Below are positions 25,001-30,829 of a DNA stretch of 64,000 nt, one piece after another (position 1 is the stretch's first letter; every line of letters starts with the position of its first letter). The stretch is taken from the NCBI GenBank assembly GCA_013298775.1, contig JAAFIV010000027.1:1-64000 (forward strand). Reading direction: 5' to 3'. The notes beneath the pieces are model-generated. The model was not told the DNA's origin and ran no database searches. It saw nothing but the letters and a program-made list of their open reading frames with translations. Position numbers and translations under genes: made by a program. This stretch comes from Ignavibacteria bacterium (GTDB lineage: Bacteria > Bacteroidota > Ignavibacteria > Kapaibacteriales > UBA4661).

Positions 25001-25616
25001 TTGTTGCGACGAGCTTCAAGCCCAGTTCCTGCGCCAATTTTGGGGCATATTCCAAAAGCGGCTTGTCTAATTCAATAAAGTGCTGTTGCACCTCGACGTA
25101 GAAATCCTCACCAAAGCGTTCTTTGTACCAAATGGCTTCCTCGCGGGCTTTGTCGTAGTCGTGATTCACTAAATGCGCTCCCAACACGCCGCCCACACAG
25201 GCTGAAGTCAGCACCAAGCCCTCGCCATACTGCTCCAGCACTTCCTTGTCAATACGCGGCTTGTAGTAAAAGCCTTCAGTATGTCCGATGGAACTCAGTT
25301 TCATCAGGTTCTCATAGCCTTTGTTGTTTTTGGCGAGCGCGATGAGGTGATAATAATTTTTGGTCTTCGTTTTGCCCGAAGTCTTGTCAAAGCGGCTTCC
25401 GGCAGCGATGTAGAGTTCGCAGCCCAGAATGGGCTTGATGTTGTACTTCTTCGCTTTTTTGTAAAACTCGAAGGTGCCAAACATTACGCCGTGGTCGGTA
25501 AGCGCGACGGCTGCGTGTCCCTGTGCAGAAGCGGCTTTGAGCAGTGTTTCGGGTGTGGCTGCGCCGTCCAGGAGGGAATAGTGGGTGTGGTTGTGGAGGT
25601 GGATGAATTCGGGCAT
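22011..25616 (-). CDS. dnaE: DNA polymerase III alpha subunit, with in-frame palindromic insertion
   Basis: 1201 residues; the replicative polymerase catalytic subunit. The N-terminal PHP domain starts FIHLHNHTHYSLLDGA. The catalytic palm shows the invariant acidic motif PDIDVDFNDERRED. The C-terminal OB region reads ACGIVSGVRTKLDKKEQMIAF and FSGKAECIFW. ATG 25616 is chosen because the conserved PHP start follows directly. Residues about 826-865 (between FASFTAI and IRFGLAAIKNVGEGA) are an insertion absent from ordinary DnaE, reading PSPQPSPKGRG then PLPLGEG. It is encoded by a double palindrome. A second copy of the first 55 codons lies at 28581-28748, beyond an inserted methylase/nuclease pair. 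No other replication genes adjoin it. Confidence 0.96.
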   Translation of the reverse strand: MPEFIHLHNHTHYSLLDGAATPETLLKAASAQGHAAVALTDHGVMFGTFEFYKKAKKYNIKPILGCELYIAAGSRFDKTSGKTKTKNYYHLIALAKNNKGYENLMKLSSIGHTEGFYYKPRIDKEVLEQYGEGLVLTSACVGGVLGAHLVNHDYDKAREEAIWYKERFGEDFYVEVQQHFIELDKPLLEYAPKLAQELGLKLVATNDCHYIKQEHATAHNVHLYIKDASQANAGMLDVHKLRYGTPEYYFKTADQMADLLGHLPGAIENTLEIAEKCNVNLKTDLHMPEFPIPAESKATNLDEYMEELTFKGIEKRYNVQAYTAASEQVRERTEFELGVIKKMGFAGYFLIVQDFINAARDMGVSVGPGRGSAAGSLVAYALGITNVDPLQYDLLFERFLNPDRVSMPDIDVDFNDERREDVIEYVRQKYGENSVAQIITFGTLSTKAVIKDVARVLGIPLQTVDSITKPIPTILGKVTPLKEALELPELRWVKESDDPKIKQLIEYALVLEGFARNSSLHAAGVVIAPGDISQYVPLYKSDSGLATQYNMKDLEDAGLLKMDFLGLRTLSIIDNTVAMIERNHGVQIDVDALDLFDKKTYDMLSAGKTLAVFQFESEPMQKYLKMLKPTNLEDLTAMNALYRPGPMGNIPDFCDRKQGKQAITLLHPQMEPSLRATYGIIVYQEQVMQLVRDIAGFSLAQADIMRRAMGKKDAKLMAEQKEAFIKGAKDVHGIEAKLAGEIFDLIEKFASYGFNKSHALAYSYLAFQTAWLKAHYPAEFLAANMTAELGNLDKIVALIDEAKYFGIEVLPPDVNESFASFTAIPPKPSPQPSPKGRGSEEKNSSGLEIPLPLGEGAIASMAGEGNKRGKIRFGLAAIKNVGEGAVQSIIKARNEAAFTSFFDFAKRVDTKAVNKRALEALVCAGGFDSQNLGHRAQLFGAIDEAIKFGNAQNNQEDTGMDSLFGAADVPTVSEPKLPTVPQWSYFEQLKHEREFLNFYVSGHPLERYRPHVETFATLQLGQKNSPLIGKPVRACGIVSGVRTKLDKKEQMIAFVQIEDFSGKAECIFWSDSFAKFRHLLVEDAMLMVSGKSQIDGSDSLKIVVDDVFPVSEAASRFAKGVKIIASRQRTKPEHIQKARDLMNAHPGKMEVVFSVFDENAEDRTKPCAMYRAKDFRFSPNDAAIEGLMSLFGHKQVKFWTE
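23021..23141. repeat. Palindromic element inserted in frame inside dnaE
   Basis: Two hairpins lie side by side: CCCTCTCCCAGAGGGAGAGGG near 23051-23071 and CCCTCTCCCTTTGGGAGAGGG near 23103-23123. They are flanked by outer inverted arms CCCTCACCC and GGGGTGAGGG. The element keeps the dnaE frame and encodes the peptide signatures PLPLGEG and SPQPSPKGRG, which are the usual translation of a dispersed intergenic palindrome found in many bacteria. Confidence 0.88.
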
Positions 25617-25776
25617 GATTGGTGTAGTTGATGGCAAATGGAAATTTTCACTCTCAAAAATGCACAAAATCTGGTGAATGCAAGAATAGTTTGTAAATAT
25701 GCGAAAAAATAGTTGTGCAAATTTTGCATAATGTTTATTTTGCGTAAAAATATTGATAAAAACAACCTCAATCGTT
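25617..25776. promoter_or_regulatory. Divergent intergenic region of dnaE and the methylase
   Basis: This 160-bp AT-rich stretch separates the divergent starts of dnaE (minus) and the DNA methylase (plus) and must carry both promoters. TTTGCATAATGTTTATTTTGCG at about 25724-25745 is the most promoter-like part, but I cannot assign it to a sigma factor. Confidence 0.45.
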
Positions 25777-27828
25777 ATGCAGACAACGTTTTCTTCCGTT
25801 CATCTTGAGCAAACACTCAACAAAATTTACGACCATCTTTATGCAAATGCTGAGAGTAAAACACCTAAAGCGATTGCCTTCGAGGTAATGAAAATTTTGC
25901 ATACGGCTGTTTTTATGGAAAAAGAGTCGCAAAAAAATGAACCTGCTTTTCATTTTCTCAAAACCGAACAACGCAAGATTACAAGCGGCAATCCAGACCT
26001 TGTGCGAATGTATGCCGATATGATTCGCAAACAATTTGAGCGCATGAAAAAAGCCTTTGGCATTTTTGCCGCAAAAGAGCGCATTGCACTTGCGGATTTT
26101 GATTTGGTGTTTGTGTGTTCTGCACTTTCGACGTTGTTAGTCTCCGACCCCAAGCGCGACGTGCTTGGCGATGCACTGGAAATCTTCCGTTCCTATTGGG
26201 CAAAAAGTCATGGCGGACAGTTTTTTACTGACCAACGTGTAACGCGCCTTGCAATGACGCTTCTGCAATTCAACCCTTACGAAGGTGATGATTTGGTGGA
26301 TATTTGCGCAGGAACAGGCGGCTTCTTATTTGCAGGTTTACACCATATTCAAGAGCTTGTTGAAAACCGTCAACACTCCGCACCGGAACAAGAAATCAAG
26401 CGCCTTGCAGCCGAAAGTTTGCTTGGTCAGGAAATTGATGCCGACGTGTGTGCTGTGGCGAATGCAACGCTTAGTTCGCGGATTGGGAATGGAATTGAAG
26501 CACTCGTGCGGCAAGGAAACTCGCTGGTTTTAGAAAATAGTACCAAAATCCGCATGAACACTCATCGCTGCGTGGCAACAAATCCGCCATTTGGAACAAA
26601 GATCACCATTAAAGACCCGTCCATTCTGCGGCAATATGAATTAAGCGGCTCGCAAATACAGCCATTGCAAGGAAATTTCTTTGCCGCAGGAAAACTCTCA
26701 CCCCGTGCGCCTGATACGCTTTTTGTTGAGCAAAATGTGAAATTATTGCAGCCCGGTGTAGGACGTTTGGCTATTGTGATTCCCTACCAAATTGCGTCCG
26801 GTCCACAAGCGCAGTTTATCCGCGAATGGCTTTTGAAGCAGGTTTCTATTGTTGCAGTGATAGACCTTCCTGCCGATACATTTCAGCCACACACAGGTAC
26901 GAAGGCGTGTTTGCTGGTCGTGAAGCGTCGTAAAAAGCCGCTTGCAGGTATTGACCTTACTAACGACCCGCCTATTTTCTGCTCCGTTCCGCGCTGGATA
27001 GGACACGATAGGCGCGGCAATCCGACATACAAAAAACTTCCCGATGGTACAGAATCAGACGAGGTTTTATCGGATTTTGAGCAGGTTGCCGTAGCATTTG
27101 AGGAATTTTTACAAGGGCAGGAAATCGCGGCACATTCGGAAAGTTTTGTAATTGGGGCAGAGGCTATCGCGCAAAACGAGGGGTTGAGATTTGATGCACA
27201 GTTTCATAAGCCGCAGACACTGCGTGTACGTTCTGAAAAAAACGGCAAAAATAAGGATTCATGGGAGTTTGTAAGGCTTGGTGATGTCGTCAAACATATT
27301 TTTTATCCGGGACGTTTTAAACGCAATTACATTGACCACCAGCCCGATGCAGTACCGTTTTTGGGCGGAACAAACATCTCCCAACTTATCATCAACACCG
27401 ATAAATGGATAAGCCCGCACGACCCGCGTTTGGAGGAGTTGAAAGTTCGTGCAGGCTGGGTTTTGATAACACGAAGCGGCTCGACTGGTATTATTTCGTC
27501 CGTACCGCAAGCATGGGACGGAGCAGCAATTTCGGAACACGTTATTCGGATTATTCCTGACGAAACCAAGCTGGAAGGCGCGTATATTCAGGCTTTTTTA
27601 CGCACACAATACGCGCAGCAGGAGTTAGCGCGAGGTGTTTATGGTTCAGTTATTGACGAAATAAATCCTGAATTTATTGGTAATCTTTCTGTACCAGTGC
27701 CGCGTAATCGCAAAGAAATGAAGAGCATCGTAGAATCTATGCGTCGTGCCGAAGATGCCCGTCAAACGGCAATCGAAGCATTCCAGTATAGCGTTCAAAG
27801 CCTCGATTCTATGCTGCTTCATCATTGA
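25777..27828 (+). CDS. N-6 adenine DNA methylase fused to a specificity-like domain
   Basis: 683 residues. An HsdM-like helical N-terminus leads to GGQFFTDQRVTRLAM, the usual entry to the methylase core. DICAGTGGF near residue 175 is the S-adenosylmethionine-binding motif I, and ATNPPFG near residue 268 is the catalytic NPPF motif of N6-adenine methylases. From about residue 490 (SWEFVRLGDVVKHIF) the protein resembles half of a type I HsdS target-recognition domain, with a closing helix. The layout, methylase plus built-in specificity domain without HsdR, suits a type II-like or type IIG-derived modification enzyme. It converges with a 225-residue HNH nuclease candidate whose stop is only 10 bp away, making a plausible restriction-modification pair. 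ATG 25777 is the likely start; an alternative start 24 bp upstream is in frame. Confidence 0.87.
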   Translation: MQTTFSSVHLEQTLNKIYDHLYANAESKTPKAIAFEVMKILHTAVFMEKESQKNEPAFHFLKTEQRKITSGNPDLVRMYADMIRKQFERMKKAFGIFAAKERIALADFDLVFVCSALSTLLVSDPKRDVLGDALEIFRSYWAKSHGGQFFTDQRVTRLAMTLLQFNPYEGDDLVDICAGTGGFLFAGLHHIQELVENRQHSAPEQEIKRLAAESLLGQEIDADVCAVANATLSSRIGNGIEALVRQGNSLVLENSTKIRMNTHRCVATNPPFGTKITIKDPSILRQYELSGSQIQPLQGNFFAAGKLSPRAPDTLFVEQNVKLLQPGVGRLAIVIPYQIASGPQAQFIREWLLKQVSIVAVIDLPADTFQPHTGTKACLLVVKRRKKPLAGIDLTNDPPIFCSVPRWIGHDRRGNPTYKKLPDGTESDEVLSDFEQVAVAFEEFLQGQEIAAHSESFVIGAEAIAQNEGLRFDAQFHKPQTLRVRSEKNGKNKDSWEFVRLGDVVKHIFYPGRFKRNYIDHQPDAVPFLGGTNISQLIINTDKWISPHDPRLEELKVRAGWVLITRSGSTGIISSVPQAWDGAAISEHVIRIIPDETKLEGAYIQAFLRTQYAQQELARGVYGSVIDEINPEFIGNLSVPVPRNRKEMKSIVESMRRAEDARQTAIEAFQYSVQSLDSMLLHH

Positions 27829-27838
27829 TTTATACTGC

Positions 27839-28516
27839 TCACCGCTTGGCAACGCGCCCATGACGCTCCAAAATATGCTGCATCAAATCCAACAATTCTT
27901 CCAATGTGAGATTACCTTGAAGTTGGTTGCTGGAGGCGAGGATGAGGAATGTATTGGAAGGCTCGTGTCGTCCGCCTCGGTCTAATGGAATCAAATGCCC
28001 CGATTGAATGAGACGCGGATTTTCTGCCACCTCAAAAATATCAATGCTGATAAGTTGTATCGGGTCTTGATACGCGTCAGGTTCTATGCGGTGTTTGGTA
28101 AGCCAAGTAAAGGAATCCTGCAAGGTGTTTTGCGGAAGAGAAGGAGCATTTTTCATTGAGAGAAGCTGCCAAAAGTAACGCACTTCAACTAAAGTTGCCG
28201 TTACCTCATCAGCATAAAATTTGTGTTCAGGCGGAAAGTTCCAACGTGGCTGCCGATTACCGTCTGTGCCGTCTTGTGGTCTGCCTGGCACACGCCCAGA
28301 GGCTGGTCGCCAAGGTGGGGAACGCCTTCCTGCGTCTCGAAATTTCGTTGCTATTGCTTTTACTGCTCTTGAGTCAAAGCCTGAATCAAGCAAATATTGA
28401 CGAACAAAATTCGAGACATCGCTTATCAAAATTCTTGCCTCTTCTGGTGAGATGTTTGATTCTTTCATTGTCAGATTTTGAATACGGTTCATACGTTCTT
28501 GTTGCTGTTGTGTCAT
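27839..28516 (-). CDS. HNH-type endonuclease candidate (restriction partner)
   Basis: 225 residues from ATG 28516 (a TTG five codons upstream is possible). Near the C-terminus it reads SGHLIPLDRGGRHEPSN followed by ASSNQLQGNLTLEE. This fits the beta-beta-alpha-metal HNH pattern H-x-x-P-L-x-x-G-G-x-H-x-x-x-N with a following N. The N-terminal two thirds are helical with a basic Pro/Gly/Arg-rich stretch (PASGRVPGRPQDGTDG) and match nothing I recognise. Its place tail-to-tail with an adenine methylase makes it the likely restriction enzyme of the pair, cutting unmethylated DNA. Nuclease function is inferred from the motif and context. Confidence 0.7.
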   Translation of the reverse strand: MTQQQQERMNRIQNLTMKESNISPEEARILISDVSNFVRQYLLDSGFDSRAVKAIATKFRDAGRRSPPWRPASGRVPGRPQDGTDGNRQPRWNFPPEHKFYADEVTATLVEVRYFWQLLSMKNAPSLPQNTLQDSFTWLTKHRIEPDAYQDPIQLISIDIFEVAENPRLIQSGHLIPLDRGGRHEPSNTFLILASSNQLQGNLTLEELLDLMQHILERHGRVAKR

Positions 28517-28580
28517 AGCATTATGTGTCAATGATGAAATGAATTTTGGCTGTTTACAGAATCAGCTTCACGCCTACCTT

Positions 28581-28748
28581 CTACGCTTTTTTGTAAAACT
28601 CAAATGTACCAAACATCACGCCGTGGTCGGTAAGCGCGACGGCTGCGTGTCCCTGTGCAGAAGCGGCTTTGAGCAGTGTTTCGGGTGTGGCTGCGCCGTC
28701 CAGGAGGGAATAGTGGGTGTGGTTGTGGAGGTGGATGAATTCAGGCAT
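28581..28748 (-). pseudogene. Truncated second copy of the dnaE 5' end
   Basis: On the minus strand this stretch encodes exactly the first 55 residues of DnaE (MPEFIHLHNHTHY through FYKKA), then meets TAG at 28583-28581. It aligns with 25444-25616 over about 173 bp. The proximal 135 bp or so differ by one base; the distal part has several changes, and those I could check are synonymous. The start codon lies 10 bp after the stop of the TOPRIM-like gene, as though this was once the original junction with dnaE. Confidence 0.9.
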
Positions 28749-28757
28749 GAGTGTATC

Positions 28758-29453
28758 TTAAATGGCAGTGGAAAGTGAGGTGTGTACTTTTGCACAGAAA
28801 TCAAAAAACTTTTTGAGCGACTGCAAGTGTGTTTCTGGCCCTGCTACACGCTTTTGAAGCTCGGTAATATAGCTTGATTCGCAGACAACTTTGGGATTAT
28901 TTTTCTGGTAATGGAGGTTCTTTTCAAGCAGCATTGCTGTTAAATATCGCTTGTGGAAATGTGCATGATTTTTGGATGTATGCTTGCCCATTTTTTCAGG
29001 ATCGTTTTCACACACGTTGTAATAGCGGGAAAATTCGATAAAATCAGGTGTGTTCGGCTGACGAGGGTAAAGAAATTTGTTTCCTAAAAACCATGTCTCC
29101 ATGCAACGATGCTGCACAATAATTTCTAAACTGCAATACTCTTCTAATTCGAGATTATGCTCTTGTATCACCTCCCAAACCTCATCAATACGGTCTTGAA
29201 TGCTACCATCTTCACTATCCAAACACAAAATCAGATAGTTGAATTTGTGTGAGTTCTCATTTATTGTGGCAATAGCATCGGGTAATTCATTCTTCAGAAT
29301 ATTTGGATAACCGTAGCCACTAATCAAGAAAAAATGCTGATGTTCAGCCTCTTGAGGCGTTTTTATTTTCTTGAAACCAAGTAACTGCTCAATCCAGCGT
29401 GAATACACCTGCATTTCTGTCTCTTCGCCTTCAACCAGAACATACAAATTCAT
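28758..29453 (-). CDS. TOPRIM-like protein, partner of the adjacent ATPase
   Basis: 231 residues. The N-terminus reads LYVLVEGEETEMQVYSRW, matching the conserved Glu motif of TOPRIM/OLD-type nucleases (Glu8), and residues 75-82 read ILCLDSED, a candidate for the second acidic motif (Asp79, Glu81). HRCMETWFLG near 115-124 resembles the E-x-W element of RloB/DUF4276-like proteins. Its ATG overlaps the TGA of the upstream ATPase gene by four bases (ATGA), behind a strong GAGGAGG ribosome-binding site, so the two are almost certainly co-translated. ATPase plus TOPRIM gene pairs include known anti-phage systems (PARIS AriA/AriB, AbiL, RloAB). Which of these it belongs to, if any, cannot be settled by eye. 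Confidence 0.68.
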   Translation of the reverse strand: MNLYVLVEGEETEMQVYSRWIEQLLGFKKIKTPQEAEHQHFFLISGYGYPNILKNELPDAIATINENSHKFNYLILCLDSEDGSIQDRIDEVWEVIQEHNLELEEYCSLEIIVQHRCMETWFLGNKFLYPRQPNTPDFIEFSRYYNVCENDPEKMGKHTSKNHAHFHKRYLTAMLLEKNLHYQKNNPKVVCESSYITELQKRVAGPETHLQSLKKFFDFCAKVHTSLSTAI

Positions 29454-30634
29454 ACAAGTTCCTCCTCTTTACCCGTTCTGAACTCTATGCTGTTTGCCAG
29501 CTCCGTGAAGGCGCGATGCTTCGTTTTTCCTAAGTGCAATTCTTCTGCCGTATGCGTTCGTACAACACCGCCATTGCGCGTAACGACCTTCCAATACTGC
29601 ATATCTACGTTGTTGATAATGTACGGGTGGTGGCTGGTGATGATAAACTGGAGATTACGTTCACTATTCAAAATTTCTTCGGTCAATGCGCCGATACAGT
29701 TTACACCTAAACTATTCTCAAATTCATCAATAAGAAGCACTGTCCCGCTCGGCGAAAGAAAAATTTCGCACAAGTCAAAGAAGACGCGCTGCATTCCTGA
29801 AGACCAGTATTCAAGCGGTATTGGGTCTTTTACGGAAGATTCTTTCATAATGAACGTGAGCGCAGGTTGTTCCAATGATTTCAGAATATTATTTGTCAAA
29901 TACAGCCGTACTGTTTGGTCTCGCAAAGTATTGATTCTTCTATCAAGTTTCAGATATTCAATCTGTGGGAAAATTGCGATAAACTCCAAGACAATTTTAT
30001 CCGCAAGATTTGGAAAACGCTTAAATGCGGCAATGATTTTGCCAATAAATGTGCGACCATGTATATCGTTAGTATGAGTTTCGATGAGGTTCGGGATAGA
30101 ATTTATGCCCTCAAACATTGCATCAATTTCATGTTCAGGGAATACCTCCATGTGGCGAATCGGTGAACCGTAAAATGAGGAAATAAAAGTATCATGAATA
30201 TCAAAAAATTCTTGCCGCAGTAACTGAACTAAGGCTTCAGCTCTCATAAATTCAAGAATACTTATCTCTACTGGAACATTGAGGGGAATTTCCTTTTCAT
30301 CAAAAATAGCTTTCTCTTTCTGACGTTCAGCAATAATGCGGTCGGGAGAGCCAATTTTACTATTGATTGTCCAAACTTTTTCAGCAATAAAATCTTCTCC
30401 AATCTCTCCCTCCCAACGATAATCACCAAATTTGAGCGTCGAACATTCAATACACCAAGAACAATGCTTTTGAATGTCTCCAAGCGCAATCCGCTTAATA
30501 GTTTTTATCGCATCCAAAATCTGCGTCTTTCCCACACCCGAAGCACCCACGAGCAAGGTAAAGTCATCGAATATCGTCTTTTCAAGCCGCCAGTTACGGG
30601 CTTTATCGTGAAATTCGATAGAGTTTATGCGCAT
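29450..30634 (-). CDS. SMC/OLD-like AAA ATPase, candidate anti-phage sensor
   Basis: 394 residues. A Walker A loop GASGVGKT lies near residue 30, an ABC-type signature EYWSSGMQRVFFD in the C-terminal half, Walker B TVLLIDEFENSLG after it, then the switch segment ITSHHPYIIN. This order is that of AAA_15/AAA_21 ATPases related to OLD and RecF/SMC proteins, with a shortened middle region instead of long coiled coils. The protein lacks its own nuclease domain; the overlapping downstream gene encodes a TOPRIM-like protein that could supply it. ATG 30634 places the family start RINSIEFHD at the N-terminus. A defence role is inferred from the gene pair and from the neighbouring restriction-modification genes. 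Confidence 0.8.
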   Translation of the reverse strand: MRINSIEFHDKARNWRLEKTIFDDFTLLVGASGVGKTQILDAIKTIKRIALGDIQKHCSWCIECSTLKFGDYRWEGEIGEDFIAEKVWTINSKIGSPDRIIAERQKEKAIFDEKEIPLNVPVEISILEFMRAEALVQLLRQEFFDIHDTFISSFYGSPIRHMEVFPEHEIDAMFEGINSIPNLIETHTNDIHGRTFIGKIIAAFKRFPNLADKIVLEFIAIFPQIEYLKLDRRINTLRDQTVRLYLTNNILKSLEQPALTFIMKESSVKDPIPLEYWSSGMQRVFFDLCEIFLSPSGTVLLIDEFENSLGVNCIGALTEEILNSERNLQFIITSHHPYIINNVDMQYWKVVTRNGGVVRTHTAEELHLGKTKHRAFTELANSIEFRTGKEEELV

Positions 30635-30664
30635 AATAATTTTCAAAACAATTGTGAACAAAAA

Positions 30665-30829
30665 TCAAATTCTATACCACCTCGCCGCCACAGAAACACT
30701 CGCCAAAGCCTCCTCAAAAGCTGCACGGCTACTACGTTCCGCACGGGTGCGAATATAGCCATCGTGCGCCAAAGCAGACGTCTTTTCTCGTATCGCGGAC
30801 ATCACTACAAATATAACCTGTCGCTGCAT
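30665..30829 (-). CDS. Small hypothetical ORF upstream of the ATPase
   Basis: A 54-codon frame on the same strand, ending 31 bp before the ATPase start. The translation is helix-like and charged: SAIREKTSALAHDGY, then RTRAERSSRAAFEEALASV. A second in-frame ATG lies nine codons in. It matches no family I can name. It could be a small antitoxin-like or regulatory component of the defence pair, a fragment of a lost gene, or chance. A ribosome-binding site is weak. Confidence 0.35.
   Translation of the reverse strand: MQRQVIFVVMSAIREKTSALAHDGYIRTRAERSSRAAFEEALASVSVAARWYRI

What the first reader, a model, noticed from the sequence alone, without database searches (positions are those of the whole stretch)
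28758..30829. Candidate anti-phage operon: OLD/SMC-like ATPase plus TOPRIM-like partner, maybe with a small third gene
The ATPase has Walker A, signature, Walker B and switch motifs. The next gene overlaps it by ATGA and has LVEGEETE and LDSED acidic motifs. ATPase-TOPRIM pairs are the design of PARIS, AbiL and RloAB, but these proteins are shorter (394 and 231 residues) than typical PARIS proteins as I recall them, and the TOPRIM partner does not clearly match one family. A 54-codon ORF sits 31 bp upstream. The operon borders a restriction-modification module, as defence genes usually do.
Basis: partly seen in the sequence, partly recalled or inferred. Interest (0 to 1): 0.75.

Follow-up and report, generated by a model that had tools for sequence, protein, structure and literature searches.

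The report
Split ATPase–nuclease phage defence pair
Two overlapping genes encode an ATP-driven sensor and a small nuclease that most likely switch on together to stop a phage-infected cell; they form a rare, mobile family related to, but separate from, the known PARIS and AbiL defence systems.

Summary
On the minus strand a 394-aa OLD/SMC-type ABC ATPase (29453-30634) overlaps by ATGA a 231-aa protein (28758-29453). The small protein has a predicted TOPRIM fold and acids E8, D79 and D/E81 conserved in every relative. In 19 other distinct loci (P2-like prophages, plasmids, chromosomes) the two genes always sit together, ATPase first. Their divergence is correlated and the pair is under purifying selection. 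Four P2-like prophages, one in E. coli, carry it between gene A and the portal gene, the published old/tin defence hotspot. In the window it lies in an island of restriction-modification modules at the dnaE start. I conclude it is a two-gene anti-phage (probably abortive) system that works like PARIS/AbiL: ATPase sensor, TOPRIM effector. It is not a member of either: no DUF4435 match, no RloB match at cut-off, and the ATPase forms its own clade. No Pfam, NCBIfam or PHROG family covers the TOPRIM partner. The proposed small third gene is not part of the system: it is absent from all other pair loci and is instead a local sequence found at the dnaE insertion site. Defence activity, trigger and target are untested.

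The parts
29450..30634 (-). OLD/SMC-type ABC ATPase, 394 aa (putative sensor). A TTG start at 30661 would give 403 aa
   Evidence: AAA_21 2e-18; invariant Walker A, SSG signature, DE of Walker B, H-switch; model matches PtuA Z 17.6, AriA Z 15.8
28758..29453 (-). Stand-alone TOPRIM-like nuclease, 231 aa (putative effector)
   Evidence: E8, D79, D/E81, E119 in all relatives; model matches OLD TOPRIM domains, Z 8.6-9.0; profile match to RloB/AbiLii 96.7%
29450..29453 (-). ATGA stop/start overlap of the two genes
   Evidence: the same 4-nt overlap in 8 other loci
28557..28753 (-). Partial, decayed copy of the dnaE 5' end bordering the pair; boundary of the neighbouring R-M insertion
30665..30829 (-). 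54-codon ORF: not part of the system; local sequence also found at the dnaE site of congeners

Best explanation
The pair is a two-gene anti-phage system of the split OLD type. The ABC ATPase most likely dimerises or oligomerises, holds the TOPRIM protein inactive, and on sensing a phage product releases or activates it. The TOPRIM protein then cuts nucleic acid with a metal-dependent E..DxD/E site, most likely host RNA such as tRNA by analogy with AriB, halting growth and aborting the infection. Shown here: gene structure, conserved active-site residues, predicted folds, constant pairing, correlated divergence, purifying selection, mobile and defence contexts. Inferred: defence activity, inhibition by the ATPase, trigger, and the RNA target.
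For: The ATPase is a bona fide ABC ATPase of the SMC/Rad50/PtuA/AriA kind. The partner has a TOPRIM-like fold with OLD TOPRIM domains among its best structural matches and a profile match to RloB/AbiLii through EGxxTE, DxD and CxETW. All 19 other distinct loci hold both genes in the same order. Distances of the two proteins correlate (Mantel r 0.88, 0 of 5000 permutations) and dN/dS is about 0.1 between congeners. Four P2-like prophages hold the pair between gpA and the portal gene, a hotspot of validated defence systems (PMC9122126). Others sit on plasmids, one beside a XamI-type R-M system. Distribution is patchy: 4 of 395 genomes of the phylum with strong matches, 2 of 8 in the genus. Neighbouring cargo at the dnaE site is R-M.
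Against: No phage challenge of any member was found in the papers searched. Foldseek alone gave no significant PDB match for the TOPRIM model; the support is by VIA-align at Z about 9, only a little above unrelated Rossmann-like folds, and residues 120-190 are modelled at low confidence. Some loci are next to ordinary chromosomal genes.
Confidence: 0.72

Rival explanations
1. Same two-gene defence logic, but the TOPRIM effector cuts DNA (phage or chromosome), as OLD and Gabija nucleases do, rather than RNA.
For: The best TOPRIM structural matches with a known function are OLD-class DNA nuclease domains.
Against: Stand-alone TOPRIM partners studied so far point the other way: AriB is a tRNase (PMC12409363). 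The closest sequence relatives are RloB/AbiLii, whose target is not established in the papers read.
Confidence: 0.3
2. A toxin-antitoxin or plasmid-maintenance module, with the TOPRIM protein as toxin and the ATPase as antitoxin, and phage defence secondary or absent.
For: Seven plasmid members, some on 10-15 kb plasmids. F. nucleatum AbiLii is toxic in E. coli (PMC3985639), and AAA-TOPRIM pairs turn up in a toxin-antitoxin network (PMC10440598).
Against: Members in the P2 defence hotspot need no plasmid maintenance. In PARIS, deletion of either gene is non-toxic (PMC9122126). AbiLi did not neutralise AbiLii in the same test.
Confidence: 0.15
3. A housekeeping DNA or RNA repair pair unrelated to defence.
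For: SMC/Rad50-like ATPase fold.
Against: Absent from most genomes of the phylum and of the genus, spread over distant phyla on mobile elements.
Confidence: 0.05

Closest known systems
AbiL (AbiLi/AbiLii, RloB family, PF13707)
   Same: Two genes, ABC ATPase then a TOPRIM-like protein of similar size; profile-profile match 96.7% over EGxxTE, DxD and CxExW; AbiLi is the best PADLOC match of the ATPase.
   Different: The window's TOPRIM protein has no RloB match at E 0.1; only weak matches occur across the family. In a tree the ATPases are a separate fully supported clade on a long branch from RloB-linked ATPases, which mostly carry a YGANASGKSN-like P-loop instead of LVGASGVGKTQ.
PARIS (AriA/AriB; OLD class 4)
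   Same: Separate ABC ATPase and TOPRIM genes; the ATPase model matches AriA (Z 15.8); both occur on phage or satellite defence hotspots.
   Different: No DUF4435 (PF14491) or AriB match in 13 family members at E 1; a true PARIS pair in the same phylum does match. Both proteins are shorter than that pair (436 and 289 aa).
P2 Old and Gabija GajA (OLD nucleases)
   Same: ABC ATPase and OLD-type TOPRIM working together; Old occupies the same P2 locus.
   Different: Single fused protein there; two proteins here.
DUF4276-linked ATPase pairs and HEC-01 (PADLOC candidate)
   Same: Short TOPRIM-like protein next to an ABC ATPase; HEC-01B weakly matches the window protein (1.9e-5).
   Different: Profile comparison with DUF4276 gives only a 12-residue match, although 8 of 13 members match Pfam DUF4276 weakly; the ATPases form a different clade; HEC-01B matches cover about half of the protein.
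WonAB and PD-T4-4
   Same: OLD-type ABC ATPase plus a short nuclease in an operon.
   Different: Their nuclease is of the PD-(D/E)XK kind (PMC12137116); here E..DxD/E in a TOPRIM-like fold.

Membership tests
PARIS | AriA-type ATPase: AAA_15 or AAA_21 over Pfam cut-off | tested here: met
   AAA_21 67.8 bits (cut-off 27), AAA_15 38.5 (cut-off 32.1). Both are generic.
PARIS | AriB partner with DUF4435 (PF14491), the published detection rule | tested here: not met
   No PF14491 or AriB match at E up to 1 in 13 members; positive control L057 matches AriB 6e-12; rule from PMC9122126.
PARIS | Triggered by Ocr-like anti-restriction protein; tRNA cleavage | not testable with these tools
   Needs experiments.
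AbiL / RloB | RloB-family (PF13707) TOPRIM partner over cut-off | tested here: not met
   No PF13707 match for the window protein at E 0.1; 11 of 13 members match weakly, best 2.4e-5; the RloB genome search found nothing in the window's genome.
AbiL / RloB | ATPase groups with RloB-linked ATPases | tested here: not met
   Separate clades, 100/100 for this family and 100/97 for RloB-linked ones; long branches, so the deeper order is unsure.
AbiL / RloB | Remote homology of the TOPRIM protein | tested here: met
   hhalign 96.7% over 98 columns, E 3e-10 for one comparison.
TOPRIM / OLD superfamily | TOPRIM fold with E and DxD acids | tested here: met
   E8, D79 and D/E81 in all 19 rows; model matches 6nk8, 6njv, 6njw, 6njx at Z 8.6-9.0. 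The third position is D or E. Fold is predicted, not solved.
TOPRIM / OLD superfamily | ABC ATPase partner with Walker A, signature, Walker B and H-switch | tested here: met
   Invariant in 11 homologues.
HEC-01 (PADLOC) | HEC-01A and HEC-01B models | tested here: inconclusive
   HEC-01A 1e-10 (generic ATPase), HEC-01B 1.9e-5 over half the protein; 7 of 13 members match PDLC04200; no published description found.

The most novel reading that the evidence does not exclude
A separate class of split OLD-ABC/TOPRIM immunity, neither PARIS nor AbiL, marked by its own TOPRIM subfamily (EGxxTE ... DxD/E ... QxxCxETWxxGN) and likely its own trigger and target, spread across distant phyla by P2-like prophages, plasmids and R-M islands.
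Probability: 0.5. Interest if true: 0.6.

Novelty: new variant of a known kind. Interest (0 to 1): 0.45.

Why it matters
Stand-alone TOPRIM effectors are a growing theme in phage defence, yet among those met in the papers read here only AriB has a known target. This compact, unnamed family, with an E. coli P2-prophage member ready to clone, offers an independent test of whether ATPase-held TOPRIM proteins are generally tRNA cutters and what they sense.

Tried and rejected
PARIS membership: rejected by the DUF4435/AriB tests with a positive control. Small third gene: rejected; in 20 pair loci the best tblastn match is E 0.04 and not adjacent, and the closest congener carries a different gene upstream. 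PD-(D/E)XK effector as in WonAB/PD-T4-4: disfavoured by fold and motifs. Foldseek alone gave lumazine synthase and RecA-like noise for the TOPRIM model; the VIA-align second look brought up OLD TOPRIM domains, with PH0156 (function unknown) first; AriB did not appear there, which proves nothing. No Rfam RNA, no promoter or terminator above chance. An attempt to gather AriB homologues from plasmids found none. PHROGs gave no match for the TOPRIM protein.

Full report
What is there. Searches confirm two minus-strand genes that share ATGA: a 394-aa ATPase (29453-30634) and a 231-aa protein (28758-29453). Pfam gives the ATPase AAA_21 (2e-18, over cut-off) and AAA_15; the small protein reaches no Pfam, NCBIfam or PHROG family.

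The family. Searches of genomes, plasmids, phages and viral contigs gave 19 other distinct loci: one congener at 73-82% identity and the rest at roughly 26-40%. In every one the ATPase lies directly upstream, with a 4-nt overlap in most and a gap of up to 15 nt in others; a few are cut by contig ends, and one copy on a Proteus plasmid has a split ATPase. Pairwise distances of the two proteins correlate (Mantel r 0.88, n = 13, 0 of 5000 permutations). Against the congener, dN and dS are 0.10 and 1.09 for the ATPase and 0.16 and 1.18 for the part of the TOPRIM gene available. In the phylum only 4 of 395 genomes carry the TOPRIM protein with strong scores, the next hit being E 2e-4; in the genus 2 of 8. 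So this is an accessory, co-inherited pair under selection for function.

Folds and active sites. The ATPase model (mean pLDDT 79) aligns with PtuA (Z 17.6), Rad50 and AriA (Z 15.8); Walker A, SSG signature, DE and H-switch residues are invariant in 11 homologues. The partner's model has a confident N-terminal half and a weak middle (residues 120-190). Foldseek gave no significant match, but VIA-align ranked PH0156 (Z 10.6) and four OLD TOPRIM structures (Z 8.6-9.0) among its first six rows. E8, D79, D/E81, R88, C117 and E119 are kept in all 19 rows. A profile comparison with RloB proteins collected here aligns EGxxTE, DxD and CxETW with CFExWLL at 96.7%. AriB is described as a two-metal TOPRIM RNase resembling RNase M5 (PMC12409363); that this protein works the same way is inference.

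Context. Four P2-like prophages (L021, L022-24/L036, L026, L035) hold the pair between the gpA replication gene and the portal/terminase genes. One is in E. coli 23CRST009, the only one of 5,426 complete E. coli genomes. That interval is the published hotspot where P2 carries old and tin and where several systems were validated (PMC9122126). Other members lie on plasmids of Acinetobacter, Proteus, Methylovorus, Nostoc, Planktothrix (next to XamI-type R-M) and Bernardetia.

The window's island. A 197-bp copy of the dnaE 5' end (92%) at 28557-28753 repeats the start of dnaE at 25425-25621; between them lies an R-M-like module. In three congeners the dnaE start is likewise preceded by R-M modules bordered by partial dnaE 5' copies. 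The TOPRIM stop codon is about 10 bp from the ATG of the partial copy. The pair thus sits in an R-M island. The small ORF belongs to this site, not to the pair.

Placing it. It works like a split OLD system such as PARIS or AbiL. It is not PARIS: no DUF4435/AriB similarity, with a true PARIS pair as positive control. It is a remote relative of AbiL but fails its partner-family cut-off, and its ATPases are a clade of their own (100/100). The deep order of that tree is unsure because of long branches. I therefore call it a new variant of a known kind.

Limits. No member was found with tested anti-phage activity; the library searched lacks many subscription papers and all preprints. Trigger, target and the inhibitory role of the ATPase are inferred.

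Noticed in passing
window 25425-25621 and 28557-28753; L107, L108, L109: The dnaE start is an insertion site: in this genus R-M modules stack directly upstream of the dnaE ATG, bordered by truncated dnaE 5' copies of about 100 or about 200 bp. Different cargoes share the same two truncation points (codon ~34 and ~66), which recalls the known insertion of R-M genes with long target duplication (own knowledge; term found); no integrase was seen.
   Followed up: partly
L109:5893-7200 (G279:C81): A C5-cytosine methyltransferase ORF is fused in frame to the first ~34 codons of a displaced dnaE copy (Pfam: PHP plus DNA_methylase), so the methylase may use the dnaE start codon.
   Followed up: partly
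window 28557-28753: The truncated dnaE copy next to the pair carries an allele (VGVK) like G399/G395, while the full dnaE of the window has YNIK like G398/G396/G279: the dnaE start seems to have been replaced together with the R-M module.
   Followed up: partly
window 25753-27828 and 27839-28531: N6 methylase fused to one specificity domain, similar to MADS MAD2 and MAD5 but far below their cut-offs, next to a 230-aa gene with no family match and an HNH-like SGHLIPLDRGG motif: possibly a compact R-M pair.
   Followed up: no
window 30685-30770; G000:C13:39712-39837: The segment HDGYIRTRAERSSRAAFEEALASV recurs at dnaE-site modules of congeners and once more in this genome just after a PIN-like toxin gene; its nature is unknown.
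   Followed up: partly
L013 (Proteus terrae plasmid NZ_CP152081.1): The 10-kb plasmid seems to hold the pair twice, with the ATPase of one copy split into two ORFs and identical TOPRIM proteins.
   Followed up: no
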